A stretch of 9,000 nucleotides of DNA. Origin: an uncultured Ruminococcus sp. Lineage in GTDB: Bacteria > Bacillota_A > Clostridia > Oscillospirales > Ruminococcaceae. The stretch is from NCBI GenBank assembly GCA_937880065.1, contig CALFMA010000336.1:1-9000 (forward strand), in the 5' to 3' direction. Below the pieces are notes generated by a model, which searched no databases, was not told where the DNA came from, and was given only the letters and a program-made list of their open reading frames with translations. Each line of letters starts with the position of its first letter. Within the stretch, counting starts at the first letter, position 1. A program made the translations under genes and the position numbers. Positions 759 through 7,534 of this stretch are shown here, piece by piece.

Positions 759-1565
759 TTATCGTGTTTTTATCAGATAAACGATTGTACCGCTTTCGTC
801 AACAATCAGAATATCGGGATTTTCTTTTGAGGTGTAGAGGGTTGCAGGAATATCGCTGAAAAATGCCCTGTAATTTCCGTCGTAATCGCTGGGAGAACCA
901 AGGCTGATATCGGGGGTATAAGTTGATGTACCTGCATTATATTCGATGTAAGCTTCACCATTAACGATTACGTGTTTCATAAAATGACCTACATCATTTT
1001 CATCAACTTTGCTTGAAGATGATGTAATATCAGTTGAAACAGTATAGTTTTCTATAGTTGGCTGTATAACTGCATCAGTTTTAACATCAACAGGTTTTTC
1101 AATTTTTGTATCTGAATTATCCGCTTCAATATTCATCTGGGGCGTTTCGGGAATTACAGCTTCCTCGGGAACTACTTCCTGTGGAGTTTCGACTATATCA
1201 GCATCGGATACTACAGAATTCGAGATAAAAACATAGGATTTTTCTGCGGTATCAGATACAGTTTCAGAGGGAACAATATTTGTAATATCCTCGTTTTTTT
1301 CCTCAATAACAGGTTTTTCAGCCTTCTCTTCAATAACAGGCTGTTCAGCGATATTGTCAATATATACTTCCCTTGTATCTGTTACGGGAACATTTTTCTG
1401 AACAGAATTAAAATATCCTGCACCGACAGCAGTCAGGCATACAGCACAAGCTGTGCCGCTGATTGCTGAAATTTTTCTTAATTTTCTGTTTCTGATTGCC
1501 TGCTGTTCCATATGTTTATCACGTGCCTGTAATACGGCATTTGCAATTTCCTTAGAGTTTTTCAT
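759..1565 (-). CDS. single-pass membrane protein, putative anti-sigma factor partner of ECF sigma, 268 aa
   Basis: Residues 1-30 are a basic, helical cytoplasmic segment (ending NRKLRK). Residues 31-51 form one hydrophobic membrane segment. Then comes a long low-complexity, acidic Pro/Val/Glu-rich extracytoplasmic region (about 55-190, with a duplicated PVIEEK at 76-90) and a compact C-terminal part (about 193-268, aromatic and beta-rich, no recognised domain). The ATG at 1565 is preferred over one seven codons upstream because AAAGGACAGG sits 8 nt before it. The gene overlaps the end of the sigma factor gene by 14 bp, the usual coupling of an ECF sigma with its membrane anti-sigma. The N-terminus shows no HxxxCxxC zinc motif, so it is not a ZAS-type anti-sigma. 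The role as sigma inhibitor or sensor is inferred from gene order and topology. Confidence 0.7.
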   Translation of the reverse strand: MKNSKEIANAVLQARDKHMEQQAIRNRKLRKISAISGTACAVCLTAVGAGYFNSVQKNVPVTDTREVYIDNIAEQPVIEEKAEKPVIEEKNEDITNIVPSETVSDTAEKSYVFISNSVVSDADIVETPQEVVPEEAVIPETPQMNIEADNSDTKIEKPVDVKTDAVIQPTIENYTVSTDITSSSSKVDENDVGHFMKHVIVNGEAYIEYNAGTSTYTPDISLGSPSDYDGNYRAFFSDIPATLYTSKENPDILIVDESGTIVYLIKTR

Positions 1566-2106
1566 AAATAAAACCTGTCCTTTCAAGTTCGTTTTTCAAA
1601 GCGTTTTTGGCTCGGTATATCAAATCTCCCACCTGACGCTTTGATTTTTTCATTATCTTTGCAATGGAATCCGAATCAAAATCCTCGAAATATTTCAGAT
1701 ATAAAACCTGTGCATATTCGGGATTAAGCTTTTTCATTGCTGTGTGCAGCTGAATTTTTCGTTCCTCAATGAGATATTGCTGTTCAATATCCGTTTCATC
1801 AGAAAGCTGAAATGCTTCATCAATGGAATTTTCCGTATAACGTGAACACTCACGGAGATATTTCAAAGCGGTATTTCTTGCTATTGCATAGAGCCATGTC
1901 TTAAAACTGCTTTTACCATTGAATTTCGGCTTTTTGACGGCAAGTCTAACGAAAGTATCCTGCATTATTTCTTCCGCTGCACAGATGTTTTTTACAATGC
2001 TGTTCAGATAAAGAGATAAGCCCTGATAATAGGTATCAATAATTACAACAAGTTCATTATCATCACCATTCAGGAAACGGCGGTAGCGATCCGCATCGTT
2101 GTCCAT
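1552..2106 (-). CDS. ECF-type RNA polymerase sigma factor (sigma-70 family), 184 aa
   Basis: The length and two-domain plan are typical of group 4 (ECF) sigma factors. Region 2 covers about residues 20-88, with AEEIMQDTFVRL at 44-55 and the -10-binding helix FKTWLYAIARNTALKYLR at 68-85. Region 4 covers about 113-172, with LNPEYAQVLYLKYFEDFDSDSIAKIM and a recognition helix around SKRQVGDLIYRAKNAL. The ATG at 2106 is chosen over one 13 codons upstream because AAAGGAGGA lies 7 nt before it. The gene is immediately followed by, and overlaps, a membrane protein that is its likely anti-sigma. The family assignment is firm; the regulon is unknown. ECF factors often control their own promoter, so the promoter upstream may carry their target motif. 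Confidence 0.93.
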   Translation of the reverse strand: MDNDADRYRRFLNGDDNELVVIIDTYYQGLSLYLNSIVKNICAAEEIMQDTFVRLAVKKPKFNGKSSFKTWLYAIARNTALKYLRECSRYTENSIDEAFQLSDETDIEQQYLIEERKIQLHTAMKKLNPEYAQVLYLKYFEDFDSDSIAKIMKKSKRQVGDLIYRAKNALKNELERTGFIYEKL

Positions 2107-2213
2107 TTGATTTCCTCCTTTCAGTTTCTGCAAATTTGCTTTCACTTATTAGATCCCGCAAGAAGTAATTTTTCGCAGTAAATTTGAAGAAATTTTTTGA
2201 ATGCCCGATTATT

Positions 2214-3117: not shown

Positions 3118-3139
3118 AATTTGACTAATTATTTGCAGA

Positions 3140-3166
3140 AAGTATATTTTTTTTGAAAATATACTT
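3140..3166. promoter_or_regulatory. 11-bp inverted repeat abutting the -35 of the gtrA-like gene; candidate operator
   Basis: The arms AAGTATATTTT (3140-3150) and AAAATATACTT (3156-3166) are perfect inverted copies around a 5-nt centre. The right arm overlaps the first two bases of the -35 hexamer at 3165-3170, a classic position for a repressor or activator site. Being all but entirely A/T, it could also be a weak terminator hairpin or chance. Confidence 0.45.
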
Positions 3167-3193
3167 GAAATATTCTGTGGAAGTTGTTATAAT
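3165..3193 (+). promoter_or_regulatory. sigma-A type promoter for gtrA-like gene and dusB, TTGAAA-17-TATAAT
   Basis: TTGAAA (3165-3170) and TATAAT (3188-3193) are separated by exactly 17 bp. The transcript would begin near 3200, giving a 25-nt leader with AAAGGA 8 nt before the ATG at 3225. Confidence 0.72.
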
Positions 3194-3224
3194 AATTGTA
3201 TATGATTATGAAAGGACTTCTGAT

Positions 3225-3707
3225 ATGGAAAAGTTAATACAGGCTTTTGTGGGAATTCTCCCAAAAAAGCTTCAGGATATTTATTATAAGTACGAGGAAA
3301 AATGGATGTATCTGTTGTTCGGCGGACTGACAACCGTTGTTTCTATCGAGACAAAGCTTTTGCTCTTTTGGATAGTTCCCGATGAGCCTAAGTGGGAAAC
3401 TACAGCAGGCGTTGTGTTTTCATGGATATGTGCCGTGACATTCGCATTTTTCACCAACAAGAAATATGTGTTCAAAAATGAAACCAATGGCAAAAAGGAA
3501 TTTTTCAAGGTATTTGTTTCATTCTACGGAGCAAGAATTGCAACCCTTGTTATGGAGTGGCTGATTTTCTTCATTTTCTGCGATTTGCTTCATATCAGCA
3601 GAACTATTATAACTTTTGCAAGTCAGGTTATTATCTTCATTGCAAACTATGTTCTCAGCAAGCTCTTTGTATTCAAAAAGAAAGACGATGCCAAATCAAA
3701 TGGATAA
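3225..3707 (+). CDS. GtrA-like family membrane protein, 160 aa
   Basis: GtrA-like proteins are small four-helix membrane proteins thought to move lipid-linked sugars across the membrane or assist cell-surface glycosylation. Four hydrophobic segments fall at about 28-50, 60-77, 95-120 and 127-146. The two family hallmarks are present: NKKYVFK after helix 2 (residues 78-84) and NYVLSKLFVFKK at the end of helix 4 (141-152). The ATG at 3225 is chosen because AAAGGA stands 8 nt upstream; a longer frame from 3153 would begin upstream of the promoter. The stop overlaps the start of dusB, so the two are co-transcribed, although no functional link between them is known. No glycosyltransferase lies nearby, so the substrate is open. 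Confidence 0.88.
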   Translation: MEKLIQAFVGILPKKLQDIYYKYEEKWMYLLFGGLTTVVSIETKLLLFWIVPDEPKWETTAGVVFSWICAVTFAFFTNKKYVFKNETNGKKEFFKVFVSFYGARIATLVMEWLIFFIFCDLLHISRTIITFASQVIIFIANYVLSKLFVFKKKDDAKSNG

Positions 3708-4890: not shown

Positions 4891-6219
4891 ATGAACCTCA
4901 GAGTTAAATGTGCCGCAATTTGTGCGGTATTTGCAGCCTTTATGATAAATGGCACAGGCTGTTCATCAAGAACTGTGGGCAAGGTGGGAGAAAGCCCCGT
5001 GGGAGATGTTCCCGTTCAGCAGACAACCGCTGCCACAGAAGAAATCACAACAGAGCCGCCTACAGAGCCTGTTCCCGAGGATAAACGAGTTCACGTTATT
5101 GCAGCAGGCGATAATCTTATACACTATTCGGTTTTCAAAAATGCGGAAAAACTTGCAGGACCGGGGGAGAATTTCGATTTCAAGCCCCTTTATGCACCTG
5201 TAAAGTACCTTATAGAGGAAGCTGATTTGGCTATCCTCAATCAGGAAACAATTATCAGTCAGAGCAATCCAATAAGAGGTGCGGGGAAGGGCGGGATAAG
5301 CGGAATCCATGTACGCGGTAACGTCATTGTGGAAGGTGCCGACGGCGGTGCGCTTTTATTCAATTCGCCTCCCGAAGTTGCAGACGCTGTAATTGACCTT
5401 GGCTTTGACGTTTTCACAATGGCAAACAACCACCTCCTTGATTTCGGAGCAGATGCAACTATCGAGTCCATTAATTTCTGGAACGAAAAGGCTGCGGCTC
5501 ACGACCTGACCGTTCTCGGTGCTTATCTCAACGAGGAGGATTCAAATAATATCCGTGTACGTGAGGTAAACGGCGTGAAAATCGCTTTCCTTTCCTATGC
5601 GGAACATCTCAACGGCTTTTCAATTCCCTATGATTCGCCCCTCCGTGTGGTTATGAACCACGAAACCGATGTTATTGAACGTCAGATTAAAGAGGCGAAT
5701 GAAATTGCCGATGCCGTTATCGTAGCGGCACACTGGGGCGTTGAGGATACAACTCTTGTATCCGAGGACAGAATTGCCCTTGCAAATCAAATGGTAAACT
5801 GGGGTGCCGATGTAATACTCGGTGCACATACTCATACAGCGGAAACTATGGAATGGATAGAGCGTGAGGACGGTTCAAAGGGATTCGTTTTCTACTCTAT
5901 GGGAAATTTCATCTGCTGTCAGACCGATAATTTCAATCTCGTAGGCGAAATGCCCGATTTTGATATTGTGGTGGACGGCGAAACAGGTGAAGTCCGTCTG
6001 GAAGATGTGGGAGTTATCCCGAACATTATCCACTATGAGGTGGGCGATTATGCTAACCTTGCGGTATATCCGTACAGCAAGTATACCCCCGAAATGGCGG
6101 CGGCTCACGGCATACCTTATGCAATCCCTGCGGGTACGTACAACTACTTTAGTTATGACGTTCTCAATGAGATAATAGACAACGCAATACCCAAGGAATT
6201 CCAAAAGCTCGATAAATAG
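4891..6219 (+). CDS. CapA/PgsA-family metallophosphatase-like lipoprotein, 442 aa
   Basis: The family (PGA_cap, calcineurin-like phosphatase fold) includes poly-gamma-glutamate capsule proteins CapA/PgsA and many uncharacterised surface proteins. A signal peptide (1-23) ends at a probable lipid-attachment cysteine at 24 (GTGC, a less usual lipobox). A Thr/Pro/Glu linker follows (44-65). The metal-site motifs are in order: GDNLIH (73-78), NQE (117-119), ANNH (178-181), AAHWG (279-283), GAHTH (311-315), and YSMGNFI (335-341). All expected Asp/Asn/His ligands are present, so it is probably catalytic. A segment of about 30 residues (128-157) between the second and third motifs looks longer than usual. 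AAAAGGAG lies 6 nt before the ATG. It has its own promoter, with no capB or capC genes nearby, so a role in capsule synthesis is not supported by context. Confidence 0.9.
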   Translation: MNLRVKCAAICAVFAAFMINGTGCSSRTVGKVGESPVGDVPVQQTTAATEEITTEPPTEPVPEDKRVHVIAAGDNLIHYSVFKNAEKLAGPGENFDFKPLYAPVKYLIEEADLAILNQETIISQSNPIRGAGKGGISGIHVRGNVIVEGADGGALLFNSPPEVADAVIDLGFDVFTMANNHLLDFGADATIESINFWNEKAAAHDLTVLGAYLNEEDSNNIRVREVNGVKIAFLSYAEHLNGFSIPYDSPLRVVMNHETDVIERQIKEANEIADAVIVAAHWGVEDTTLVSEDRIALANQMVNWGADVILGAHTHTAETMEWIEREDGSKGFVFYSMGNFICCQTDNFNLVGEMPDFDIVVDGETGEVRLEDVGVIPNIIHYEVGDYANLAVYPYSKYTPEMAAAHGIPYAIPAGTYNYFSYDVLNEIIDNAIPKEFQKLDK

Positions 6220-6345
6220 AAAATTAATTCATAATTCGTTCATTTTTTCTATTTCATAGCTAAATCGGAACTTAAATGCATTGTGCAAACTGTGCAAAAA
6301 GGGTATCTCCTGTTTATTTAAAATACCAAAAACAATATAAACCTA
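6220..6345. other. capA-scaC gap, upstream part: no gene; direct repeat TGTGCAAA x2
   Basis: No reading frame of interest is seen. TGTGCAAA occurs twice in the same orientation with a 9-bp period (6282-6289 and 6291-6298), about 50 bp upstream of the scaC promoter, a possible activator-binding site. A weak A/T stem (TAGAAAA from 6217 with TTTTCTA near 6246-6252) is the only candidate for a capA terminator. Confidence 0.35.
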
Positions 6346-6374
6346 TTTACTTTTTCTGAGAGTTGATATATAAT
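6346..6374 (+). promoter_or_regulatory. promoter of the cellulosome (sca) cluster, TTTACT-17-TATAAT
   Basis: TTTACT (6346-6351) and a perfect TATAAT (6369-6374) are separated by 17 bp. Transcription would start near 6381, giving an untranslated leader of about 225 nt before scaC. It is the only good promoter found ahead of the three sca genes. Confidence 0.7.
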
Positions 6375-6412
6375 AAAATCATGAATAAATATAGAAACTG
6401 GGAGTAACATCT

Positions 6413-6570
6413 CATCACGGCAGTGTGATGCGTCTTATGCTGATGCTGCACAATGTGAAGAACCAATGTTTGTTCATGATGCGGCAGGACTGTACAGAGT
6501 CCCGTGTCCACGGTATCAGGCGATACCAAGTATAAGACAAGATATATTAAAGGGGCAAAATGTTCCTTTA
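6413..6570 (+). promoter_or_regulatory. structured 5' leader of scaC, riboswitch-like multi-branch RNA
   Basis: Read by eye, the leader folds consistently. Hairpin A: CATCAC 6413-6418 with GTGATG 6425-6430. A 10-bp closing helix (6432-6441 with 6529-6538, one G-U) encloses three arms. Arm 1: TGCTGCA 6444-6450 with TGCGGCA 6480-6486, topped by TGAAgAA 6456-6462 with TTgTTCA 6470-6476. Arm 2: GGACT 6487-6491 with AGTCC 6498-6502. Arm 3: GGTATC 6512-6517 with GATACC 6522-6527. Unpaired CGTGTCCAC (6503-6511) lies in the junction. A 9-bp terminator-like hairpin follows at 6548-6570. The layout is that of a ligand-sensing leader, but it fits no riboswitch consensus I can recall. The function is inference. 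Confidence 0.55.
6548..6570 (+). terminator. terminator-like or RBS-proximal hairpin in scaC leader
   Basis: TAAAGGGGC (6548-6556) pairs with GTTCCTTTA (6562-6570) around AAAAT, 9 bp including two G-U. It is followed by TTATATAA rather than a pure T-run, so termination would be partial. It ends 19 nt before the ribosome binding site AAGGAGG (6590-6596) of scaC. Confidence 0.4.
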
Positions 6571-6604
6571 TTATATAACATTAATGAAGAAGGAGGAAAA
6601 AAAC

Positions 6605-7423
6605 ATGAAGACAAAAAAGATAGTCATCGGAACTATGGCGGCAGCAATGCTTTCACTTTCCGTATGCTCACTTATCCCCGCTGCTGCTGCAGGCGAAACA
6701 GTGCAGATTATCGCAGGCAATGCAACAGCTCAGGCTGGTGAGTCATTTGAGGTGGAGGTGACAATTGCAGATATACCTGATACAGGTGTTCGTGGCTGCA
6801 GCTTCTCAATTGAGTTCGATAACTCTATTATCACAATTGACGAAATTACAGCAGGATCACTTACAAACACAGGTGTATCTTCAATCGACCCTTCAGCGTC
6901 TAAGCTTCCCACTTTTAACAGTATCGAAGAGAATGATGAGGGCTTCGCCAGCGTTGTGTGGTCAACAGCAGTTGATGATCCCACTTACTGGCTTAAAGGC
7001 GAGGGCGTTCTTTGTACAATTAAGGGAACAGTAGCATCAAATGCGAAAGACGGAGCAAAGTCAAACATTGACATCGTACCTGTAAGACGTAACGAGAATT
7101 CTGAATCAAGCGTTGCAAACGATGTTATTGACTGCGGTTATCTTAAAGATGATGTCTTAGTCAACTATGAAGTTAAAACAACTTCAGGTTCAGTTACTGT
7201 AGGAAGTCAGGCAGCAGGCACACTCAAGGGTGACGCTAACTGCGACGGCAAGGTTTCAATTGCTGATGCAGCAGCAATTTTCCAGGTACTCAGTAACAAG
7301 GATAAGTATTCGCTTTCCGCTGCGGGCGAAGCAAATGCTGACGTAGCAGAACCGGCAGGTATAACAGCCGCAGACGCTATTGAAATCCAGAAACTTGACG
7401 CAGGTCTTATCGATAAGCTTTAA
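6605..7423 (+). CDS. scaC: ScaC-like cellulosome adaptor scaffoldin (cohesin plus dockerin), 272 aa
   Basis: In R. flavefaciens, ScaC is an adaptor: its dockerin plugs into the ScaA cohesin, and its own cohesin binds a different set of dockerins, widening the enzyme range. Here a signal peptide (1-29, cut near AAAA|GET) precedes one cohesin-type module (about 31-200). That module begins VQIIAGNATAQAGESFEVEVTIADIP and has the ...FSIEFDNSIITIDEITAGSL strand pattern. The dockerin follows at about 206-270. Its first calcium loop is canonical (D210, N212, D214, K216, D221). The second (D246 to D257) has Ala and Pro where Asn/Asp ligands are usual. The ATG at 6605 is chosen: AAGGAGG is 8 nt upstream, and an in-frame ATG at 6560 lies within the leader hairpin. 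It is the first gene of the cluster, 111 bp before the scaA-like gene. Identity rests on domain order and synteny. Confidence 0.87.
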   Translation: MKTKKIVIGTMAAAMLSLSVCSLIPAAAAGETVQIIAGNATAQAGESFEVEVTIADIPDTGVRGCSFSIEFDNSIITIDEITAGSLTNTGVSSIDPSASKLPTFNSIEENDEGFASVVWSTAVDDPTYWLKGEGVLCTIKGTVASNAKDGAKSNIDIVPVRRNENSESSVANDVIDCGYLKDDVLVNYEVKTTSGSVTVGSQAAGTLKGDANCDGKVSIADAAAIFQVLSNKDKYSLSAAGEANADVAEPAGITAADAIEIQKLDAGLIDKL

Positions 7424-7534
7424 TTAGCCGTCGGTTACCAGAGATTATCTGATTTGTCCCCCTTACAAAGGAATACAAACCCACACTATAAGTTATTAAT
7501 AGGCTAAAAACCTAAAAGAAAGGAATTATTACAA
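7424..7534. other. scaC-scaA spacer; weak internal promoter candidate
   Basis: The 111-bp gap holds no terminator with a T-run. TTACAA (7463-7468) and TATAAG (7487-7492), 18 bp apart, could be a weak internal promoter. GAAAGGA (7518-7524) is the ribosome binding site of the next gene. Read-through from scaC is therefore likely. Confidence 0.35.

What the first reader, a model, noticed from the sequence alone, without database searches (positions are those of the whole stretch)
6381..6604. Complex structured leader RNA ahead of the cellulosome cluster, possibly a new riboswitch or regulatory RNA
Seen directly: a 10-bp closing helix (6432-6441/6529-6538) encloses three nested hairpins that are adjacent but do not conflict. 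Hairpin A sits just before, a terminator-like hairpin just after (6548-6570), and the scaC ribosome binding site 19 nt beyond. So many compatible helices in about 160 nt are unlikely in a random leader. The layout (aptamer-like junction plus switchable hairpin) is typical of cis-regulatory RNA. I matched it against remembered consensus motifs (c-di-GMP-I, yybP-ykoY Mn, SAM-I, TPP, preQ1, THF, fluoride, guanidine) and none fits, although GGGAGTAAC near 6400 recalls part of the yybP-ykoY loop. A leader controlling scaffoldin expression would be new to me.
Basis: partly seen in the sequence, partly recalled or inferred. Interest (0 to 1): 0.72.

Follow-up and report, generated by a model that had tools for sequence, protein, structure and literature searches.

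The report
Conserved RNA leader on scaffoldin operon
The stretch ahead of a gut bacterium's cellulose-degrading scaffold gene encodes an elaborately folded RNA that is kept in the same place across most of a bacterial genus, so it probably controls how much of the cellulose-degrading machine is made, although what it responds to is unknown.

Summary
Relatives show an apparently undescribed leader RNA, directly ahead of scaC in 105 of 106 model hits from 125 genomes of one genus, and in 104 of the 110 of those genomes with ScaC. No Rfam family reaches threshold. The closing helix pairs better within than between leaders (0/1000 permutations). The last hairpin is no terminator; outside the genus its upper stem is rewritten but kept. 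Against: a stricter column-wise covariation test found no significant pair, and helix X is too conserved to covary much. Conclusion: a two-module cis-acting leader of the scaffoldin operon, most likely acting on mRNA lifetime or translation through exposure of the 5' end; a riboswitch is possible but undemonstrated.

The parts
6346..6374 (+). Promoter: TTTACT, 17-nt spacer, TATAAT
   Evidence: Two boxes at the same distance were found in 81 of 81 leaders. Start site about 6381 is inferred.
6378..6392 (+). Helix X, 5' strand (5' end of the transcript)
   Evidence: Pairs with 6466-6480, 15 contiguous bp in the window; 9-18 bp in the same register in 36 of 81 leaders (L031 and L048 also pass 9 bp but are doubtful and not counted); chosen by RNAalifold on 9 and on 22 leaders.
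6399..6414 (+). Hairpin P0 (UGGGA/UCUCA)
   Evidence: GGGA/UCUC in the MFE; 86.6% of cells paired over 66 distinct rows, but P0 and hairpin A together covary no more than shuffles.
6415..6428 (+). Hairpin A (UCACG-GCAG-UGUGA)
   Evidence: 99.7% of cells paired in 66 distinct rows; 24 of 25 departures from the commonest pair keep an RNA pair, 20 of them as G-U. Rows without the motif were not in that alignment.
6432..6441 (+). Closing helix P1, 5' strand
   Evidence: native versus permuted partners 0/300 in 77 leaders and 0/1000 in 32. No double change within the nine closest leaders.
6445..6449 (+). Helix P2, 5' strand (pairs with 6481-6485)
   Evidence: 17/1000 permutations. Its loop holds the 3' strand of helix X.
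6466..6480 (+). Helix X, 3' strand (AUGUUUGUUCAUGAU) in the P2 loop
6481..6485 (+). Helix P2, 3' strand
6487..6502 (+). Hairpin P3
   Evidence: A-U to G-C double change in 2 of 9 close leaders.
6512..6527 (+). Hairpin P4
   Evidence: 5 of 6 pairs show double changes among nine close leaders; 77.8% of cells paired.
6529..6538 (+). Closing helix P1, 3' strand
   Evidence: As the 5' strand.
6542..6576 (+). Hairpin T, directly before the RBS
   Evidence: 98.8% of cells paired in 65 distinct rows; 5 pairs with double changes in 20 chosen rows that include three from outside the genus, shuffles 1/500, but one slid control also reaches 5.
6590..6596 (+). Shine-Dalgarno AAGGAGG
   Evidence: Read directly.
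6605..7423 (+). scaC (cohesin plus sub-threshold dockerin), the gene that follows
   Evidence: Pfam Cohesin E 1.5e-12, Dockerin_1 20.2 bits against cut-off 22.9; relatives named scaffoldin C.

Best explanation
It is a scaC-specific structured 5' leader RNA, present in most ScaC-bearing genomes of the genus, that acts in cis on the scaffoldin operon and is built of two modules. Shown by sequence and comparison: (1) an upstream module (P0, hairpin A, closing helix P1 with P2-P4 inside), in which the first nucleotides of the transcript can, in one large group of leaders, pair with the loop of P2 (helix X); (2) a separate hairpin T just upstream of an exposed ribosome binding site. Inferred: that the leader regulates; that X and P1, which cross, form a pseudoknot or two alternative folds; that whether X is formed decides whether the 5' end of the mRNA is buried or free, and hence its 5'-end-dependent decay or early ribosome loading; that hairpin T keeps the RBS open and shields the coding part. 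A signal (metabolite, protein or temperature; unknown) may bias X against P1.
For: Position and exclusivity: 106 hits of the T model in 125 genomes, 105 of them before a ScaC gene; one hit each in 104 of the 105 genomes hit; upstream-module model in 96 of 125. ScaC is found in 112 genomes at E 1e-20, two of which (G023, G083) match by the dockerin part only. Structure: P1 within-leader pairing beats permuted pairing 0/300 and 0/1000, with rewritten helices such as GCCUUAA/UUAAGGC (L048), GUCUUC/GAAGAC (L065) and UUCAGAU/AUCUGAA (L075). P3 and P4 double changes: 6 pairs against 3.2 in shuffles, 5/500; slid controls 0-4. Helix X: 36 of 81 leaders; RNAalifold prefers it; double change C-G to U-A in L072, A-U to G-C in L016, L027 and L017. 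X-forced and X-free folds differ by -5.8 to +3.3 kcal/mol, mean -0.9, in 33 chosen leaders. Modularity: L252, L076 (same contig as L263), L264 and L265 lack the hairpin A motif and show a second promoter-like site inside the leader but keep T (promoter by eye). Literature: scaA, scaB and scaC rise about 4.5-fold en bloc on cellulose in strain FD-1 (PMC2721979, passages).
Against: A phylogeny-aware column test on 73 leaders found no pair at E <= 1. Helix X permutation is weak because both strands are nearly invariant (689/5000 unweighted, 126/5000 weighted), and 45 of 81 leaders lack a convincing UUUGUUY partner. In 12 of 77 leaders the closing helix is not the best helix between the two regions. 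P0 plus hairpin A covary no more than shuffles. For hairpin T the slid control by -2 columns has as many double-changed pairs as the true register (5, 3). 9 of 106 leaders lack the hairpin A motif. ScaC protein was unaffected by substrate in strain 007 (PMC3672088, passages). No start site, half-life or ligand has been measured.
Confidence: 0.45

Rival explanations
1. A metabolite-binding riboswitch: the upstream module is an aptamer for a small molecule (for example a cellulose breakdown product), and its folding changes translation or stability of the sca mRNA.
For: Compact, highly conserved, pseudoknot-capable module with near-invariant loops, before one operon; two folds of similar energy; sca genes respond to growth substrate in FD-1. 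[quoted passage not shown]
Against: No terminator. The SD-pairing potential of hairpin T is not kept in L271. The gene controlled is structural, so it gives no hint of a ligand. Some lineages lack the module.
Confidence: 0.27
2. A purely structural mRNA stabiliser and translation enhancer for an abundant secreted protein, without any switching.
For: ScaC, ScaA, ScaB and CttA are among the most prominent proteins in the supernatant of Avicel-grown strain 007 (PMC3672088, passages). Hairpin T is the most widely kept part. In Clostridium cellulolyticum, stem-loops set transcript abundance of the cellulosomal operon (PMC4423207, outline with abstract).
Against: A stabiliser would not seem to need near-invariant hairpin A, GUCUUA and UUUGUUCAUG sequences (inference); the upstream module is more elaborate than a protective stem.
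Confidence: 0.2
3. DNA-level control: the palindrome CATCAC-GGCAGT-GTGATG (hairpin A) is an operator for a DNA-binding protein, and the rest is incidental.
For: It is a perfect dyad about 32 nt after the likely start site, with both arms strongly conserved.
Against: 24 of 25 departures keep an RNA pair and 20 of these are G-U, which would break a DNA dyad. Caveat: leaders without the motif were left out (4 of 81) and the pattern used to find it favoured some letters. The palindrome alone does not explain P1, X, P3, P4 or T.
Confidence: 0.07
4. Binding site for an RNA-binding protein or small RNA that controls the operon.
For: Near-invariant loop and unpaired sequences.
Against: No candidate protein or small RNA was sought here.
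Confidence: 0.1

Closest known systems
[quoted passage not shown]
   Same: Long conserved structured leader ahead of cellulosomal genes, with alternative folds proposed, called a putative riboswitch by its authors (outline with abstract and one section seen).
   Different: Different genus and gene cluster (hemicellulases). Its authors propose that stem-loops there block transcription; this leader has no terminator. No sequence comparison with that leader was made here.
Selective RNA processing and stabilisation stem-loops of cip-cel, Clostridium cellulolyticum (PMC4423207)
   Same: RNA structure in the mRNA of a cellulosomal operon that influences transcript abundance (outline with abstract seen).
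   Different: Those are intergenic processing sites with stem-loops at 3' ends of genes. This is a leader with a multi-helix module plus a hairpin before the first RBS.
caiA RNA, Rfam RF02934
   Same: A hairpin followed by an RBS; weak local match 6541-6607 (29.7 bits).
   Different: Gathering score 55.5 is not reached in any search made; three of the sub-threshold hits that I could read precede other genes, GroES-like, PurC-like and one unnamed (names are my reading); the 78-position caiA model has no upstream module.
yybP-ykoY manganese riboswitch
   Different: No Rfam match even at E 10 in 6220-6660.

Membership tests
Riboswitch (as a kind) | Conserved structured domain in a 5' leader | tested here: met
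   the leader position rests on a predicted promoter
Riboswitch (as a kind) | Expression platform: intrinsic terminator | tested here: not met
   0 terminator-like sites in 6001-6800; no U-tract after hairpin T in alignment A5 (by eye)
Riboswitch (as a kind) | Expression platform: sequestering of the Shine-Dalgarno | tested here: inconclusive
   Strand UUCCUUU of hairpin T could pair with the SD in leaders that keep it, but in L271 the strand is CCGCUUU and the hairpin is kept instead; the MFE leaves the SD unpaired
Riboswitch (as a kind) | Specific binding of a ligand | not testable with these tools
   Needs in-line probing, SHAPE or calorimetry
caiA RNA RF02934 | Score at or above Rfam gathering score 55.5 | tested here: not met
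   29.7 bits in the window; 0 of 197 genomes over cut-off; 31.9 and 29.3 bits among 20 further loci
Any other Rfam 15 family, yybP-ykoY included | Match at gathering score | tested here: not met
   0 in the window; 0 in 12 of the 80 related loci, 111,534 bases
Selective RNA processing and stabilisation element | Processing site next to a stem-loop in a polycistronic mRNA | not testable with these tools
   No transcript-end data for this organism
Intrinsic terminator or attenuator | G+C-rich hairpin followed by a run of U | tested here: not met

The most novel reading that the evidence does not exclude
A new class of gene-control RNA in which the extreme 5' end of the mRNA is itself one arm of the switch: it pairs with an internal loop and competes with the closing helix, so that a signal tied to plant-fibre degradation gates burial of the mRNA 5' end and thereby expression of the whole scaffoldin operon.
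Probability: 0.22. Interest if true: 0.85.

Novelty: new variant of a known kind. Interest (0 to 1): 0.62.

Why it matters
Ruminococcus flavefaciens and its kin are major fibre degraders of herbivore guts, and as far as I know how their scaffoldin genes are controlled is poorly understood (own knowledge). A conserved RNA leader in 104 of 110 ScaC-bearing genomes examined makes that question testable: the leader is small, single copy and can be moved onto a reporter. It also offers a candidate RNA family absent from Rfam 15, with 106 leaders in hand, and suggests that a published scaC PCR primer (PMC3197198) owes its conserved site to an RNA element.

Tried and rejected
1. Known Rfam families: none at threshold; lax searches gave caiA and chance-like hits only. 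caiA fails its cut-off, and three sub-threshold hits that I could read precede other genes.

2. Terminator or attenuator: rejected.

3. Anti-Shine-Dalgarno switch through hairpin T (UUCCUUU against GAAGGAG): disfavoured, because in L271 and in L065 the upper stem is rewritten to keep the hairpin, and in L271 SD complementarity is lost.

4. Short upstream reading frame at the start of the leader: 55 of 81 leaders have AUG there, 15 have AAG, 9 GUG and 2 others; among the 55 the frame runs from 5 to 69 codons. Rejected as the cause of conservation.

5. Pairing of hairpin T's 3' strand with the conserved scaC-scaA intergenic element (10 bp, seen by eye): L065 and L008 do not compensate; not supported.

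6. Column-wise covariation with a phylogenetic null on a 73-leader alignment: no pair at E <= 1. The alignment through the variable middle is poor and the conserved parts vary little; this result stands against over-claiming.

7. Phages, plasmids and viral contigs: no match or no relative.

8. A regulon sharing the leader: patterns from hairpin A (up to 3 mismatches) and hairpin T (exact) each occur once in 9 of 10 genomes and not in the tenth.

9. Of the 42 leaders with a UUUGUUY string, L031, L044, L048, L222 and L252 are poor matches and probably not true helix X; they were kept in the permutation.

10. My first structure for alignment A3 had P4 one column off, so its slid control looked as good as the structure itself; one search repeats it in the register that RNAalifold chose.

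Full report
OBSERVATION. Folding 6381-6604 gives -62.8 kcal/mol, z -3.97 against dinucleotide shuffles. Stability alone is not special: the leader tile ranks third of 79 tiles in the window, and 20 chosen leaders have z from -0.73 to -6.27.

RELATIVES. ORF 6605-7423 is a ScaC-type cohesin protein. A profile scan of genome contigs found 107 relatives, of which the best 80 were returned as loci. The region before scaC is conserved in most of them: the hairpin A motif is present in 77 of 81 leaders, the window included. Promoter boxes stand at the same spacing in 81 of 81. From the -10 box to the start codon the leader is 184 to 405 nt. Consensus: AUGAAUAAAUAU..UUUGGGAUUAACAUCUCAUCACGGCAGUGUGAUGCGUCUUA, a variable middle, then AAGACANGAUAUAAUNAAAGGGGC..GUUCCUUUGUUAUAUAACAUUAAUGAAGAAGGAGG.

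DISTRIBUTION. Two covariance models were built, R1 for the 5' module and R2 for hairpin T plus SD (E-values rough). In the 125 held genomes of one genus R1 hits 96 and R2 hits 105, one place each except two in G080. Of the 106 R2 places, 105 lie before a ScaC gene; the exception is the weakest hit. ScaC is found in 112 genomes at E 1e-20, two of them by the dockerin part only, so 104 of 110 ScaC genomes carry hairpin T; the six without are G033, G044, G066, G092, G104 and G112. In 396 genomes drawn from the family, 12 hit at E 0.001: eight are among those 125; three (L269, L270, L271) are not, and again precede a ScaC-like cohesin gene; one precedes a gene that I read as ribosomal protein S12 (gene names my reading). 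L269 and L270 are near-identical here. These three keep hairpin T with a rewritten upper stem (AAAGGAAU/AUUCCUUU; AAGGCGG/CCGCUUU), an unchanged AUAUAA/UUAUAU lower stem, and a GGGUA/UACCC hairpin where P0 lies (by eye).

STRUCTURE EVIDENCE. P1: in 77 leaders the best helix between the two strand regions scores 15.06 on average against 13.57 for partners from other leaders; 0 of 300 permutations reach it. In 32 non-redundant leaders with a UUUGUUY string it is 15.76 against 13.68, 0 of 1000. In 65 of 77 the best helix is the GUCUU-type one; in L009, L016, L018, L027, L029, L033, L036, L038, L039, L049, L050 and L075 it is shifted, rewritten or another helix. P2: 17 of 1000 permutations. P3 and P4: among the nine closest leaders 6 pairs have double changes against 3.2 in shuffles (5 of 500), 10 such cells against 4.2 (1 of 500), slid controls 0 to 4 pairs; all six lie in P3 and P4, and X, P1, P2 and T hardly vary in that set. 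Hairpin A: 24 of 25 departures keep an RNA pair (leaders without the motif were not in it, and 9 of 106 lack it). Hairpin T: 98.8% paired in 65 rows; with the three outside relatives 5 pairs have double changes, 1 of 500 shuffles, though a slide of -2 columns gives 5 as well while pairing only 54.7% of cells against 92.3% (L269 and L270 are one base out of register there). Against: a phylogenetic covariation test over a 73-leader alignment found no pair at E <= 1, and P0 plus hairpin A covary no more than shuffles.

HELIX X. The start of the transcript, AUCAUGAAUAAAUAU (6378-6392), is complementary to AUGUUUGUUCAUGAU (6466-6480) in the P2 loop. In the same register 38 of 81 leaders pair over at least 9 contiguous bp. 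I count 36 of them, 9 to 18 bp: L031 is doubtful, and the string in L048 lies in hairpin T. RNAalifold, which cannot draw pseudoknots, chooses X instead of P1 both for nine and for 22 leaders. Compensating changes exist (C-G to U-A in L072; A-U to G-C in L016, L027 and L017), but both strands are so conserved that a permutation test is weak (689/5000 unweighted, 126/5000 weighted). Long leaders of the R. flavefaciens type lack this partner; 16 of 81 can instead pair AUAUAGAU or GUAUAGAC with a conserved GUCUGUAU, 8 bp, which is only suggestive. X and P1 cross. If exclusive, the two folds lie within -5.8 to +3.3 kcal/mol of each other in 33 chosen leaders, mean -0.9 (ViennaRNA at 39 C, start assumed).

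MODULARITY AND MECHANISM. L252, L076, L264 and L265 lack the hairpin A motif and show, by eye, a second promoter-like site inside the leader, yet keep hairpin T (L076 and L263 are the same contig by length). L278-L280, without an R2 hit, show a second promoter-like site too. So T and the upstream module look separable. T is no terminator, and in L271 the hairpin rather than SD complementarity is kept. The most economical reading is an upstream module that controls exposure of the 5' end, plus a hairpin that keeps the RBS region open and the message protected. Which signal is read, if any, is unknown. Published data give scaA, scaB and scaC about 4.5-fold up on cellulose in FD-1 (PMC2721979, passages), while ScaC protein did not change in strain 007 (PMC3672088, passages).

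COMPARISON WITH THE KNOWN. No Rfam 15 family reaches gathering score in the window or in 12 related loci; lax searches of the leader and of 20 further loci gave only sub-threshold hits. Searches of the held papers: scaC + R. flavefaciens + untranslated, 0 papers; scaffoldin + riboswitch + Ruminococcus, 2; R. flavefaciens + scaC + upstream, 6; with primers and conserved, 7; cellulosome + stem-loop + RNA processing + Ruminococcus, at least three of the four terms, 34 with 12 listed; cellulosome + riboswitch, 31 with 15 listed; broader ones hold thousands with 10-12 listed. Nothing listed describes this leader in its title or the start of its abstract. I opened PMC2721979, PMC3672088, PMC3197198 and PMC12484212 (passages), PMC5815224 (outline and one section), PMC4423207 (outline), and searched three surveys of new bacterial RNAs (PMC11109978, PMC8632094, PMC6429828), whose main texts mention neither Ruminococcus nor scaffoldin. 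Most subscription papers, and the 2017 paper on 224 candidate RNAs (identifier recalled), are not held. The scaC forward primer AGACARGRTATAATHAAAGGGGC used for T-RFLP and cloning (PMC3197198) lies on P1's 3' strand and hairpin T.

VERDICT. A real, conserved, apparently undescribed structured leader RNA of the Ruminococcus scaffoldin operon. That it is a functional cis-acting RNA I hold at about 0.9; the specific mechanism at 0.45; a ligand-binding riboswitch at about 0.27.

Noticed in passing
7443-7482: Near-invariant element GATTATCTGATTTGTCCCCCTTACAAAGGAATACAAACCC between scaC and the next gene: GATTATCTGATTTGTCCC exact in 77 of 79 loci and AAAGGAATW in 79 of 79 (2 of 81 too short to read). 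The published ScaRev primer matches it.
   Followed up: partly
L290-L297 (genome G001): In one of 12 genomes searched, a 19-nt pattern from that element recurs nine more times with up to 3 mismatches, control 0; the places I looked at seem to be mostly between genes. Function unknown.
   Followed up: partly
L252, L076, L264, L265, L278-L280: In some lineages a second sigma-70-like promoter seems to sit inside the scaC leader downstream of the usual one (by eye).
   Followed up: partly
3130-3270: Strong hairpins around the start of the GtrA-like ORF, z -4.56, next to several promoter-like sites.
   Followed up: no
4891-6219: PGA_cap (capsule synthesis-like) gene directly upstream of scaC, as capA is listed with the sca cluster of R. 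flavefaciens 007.
   Followed up: no
759-2145 (minus strand): Sigma-70 region 2/4 protein (1552-2145) followed by an ORF without Pfam match (759-1586); a sigma/anti-sigma pair is a guess.
   Followed up: no
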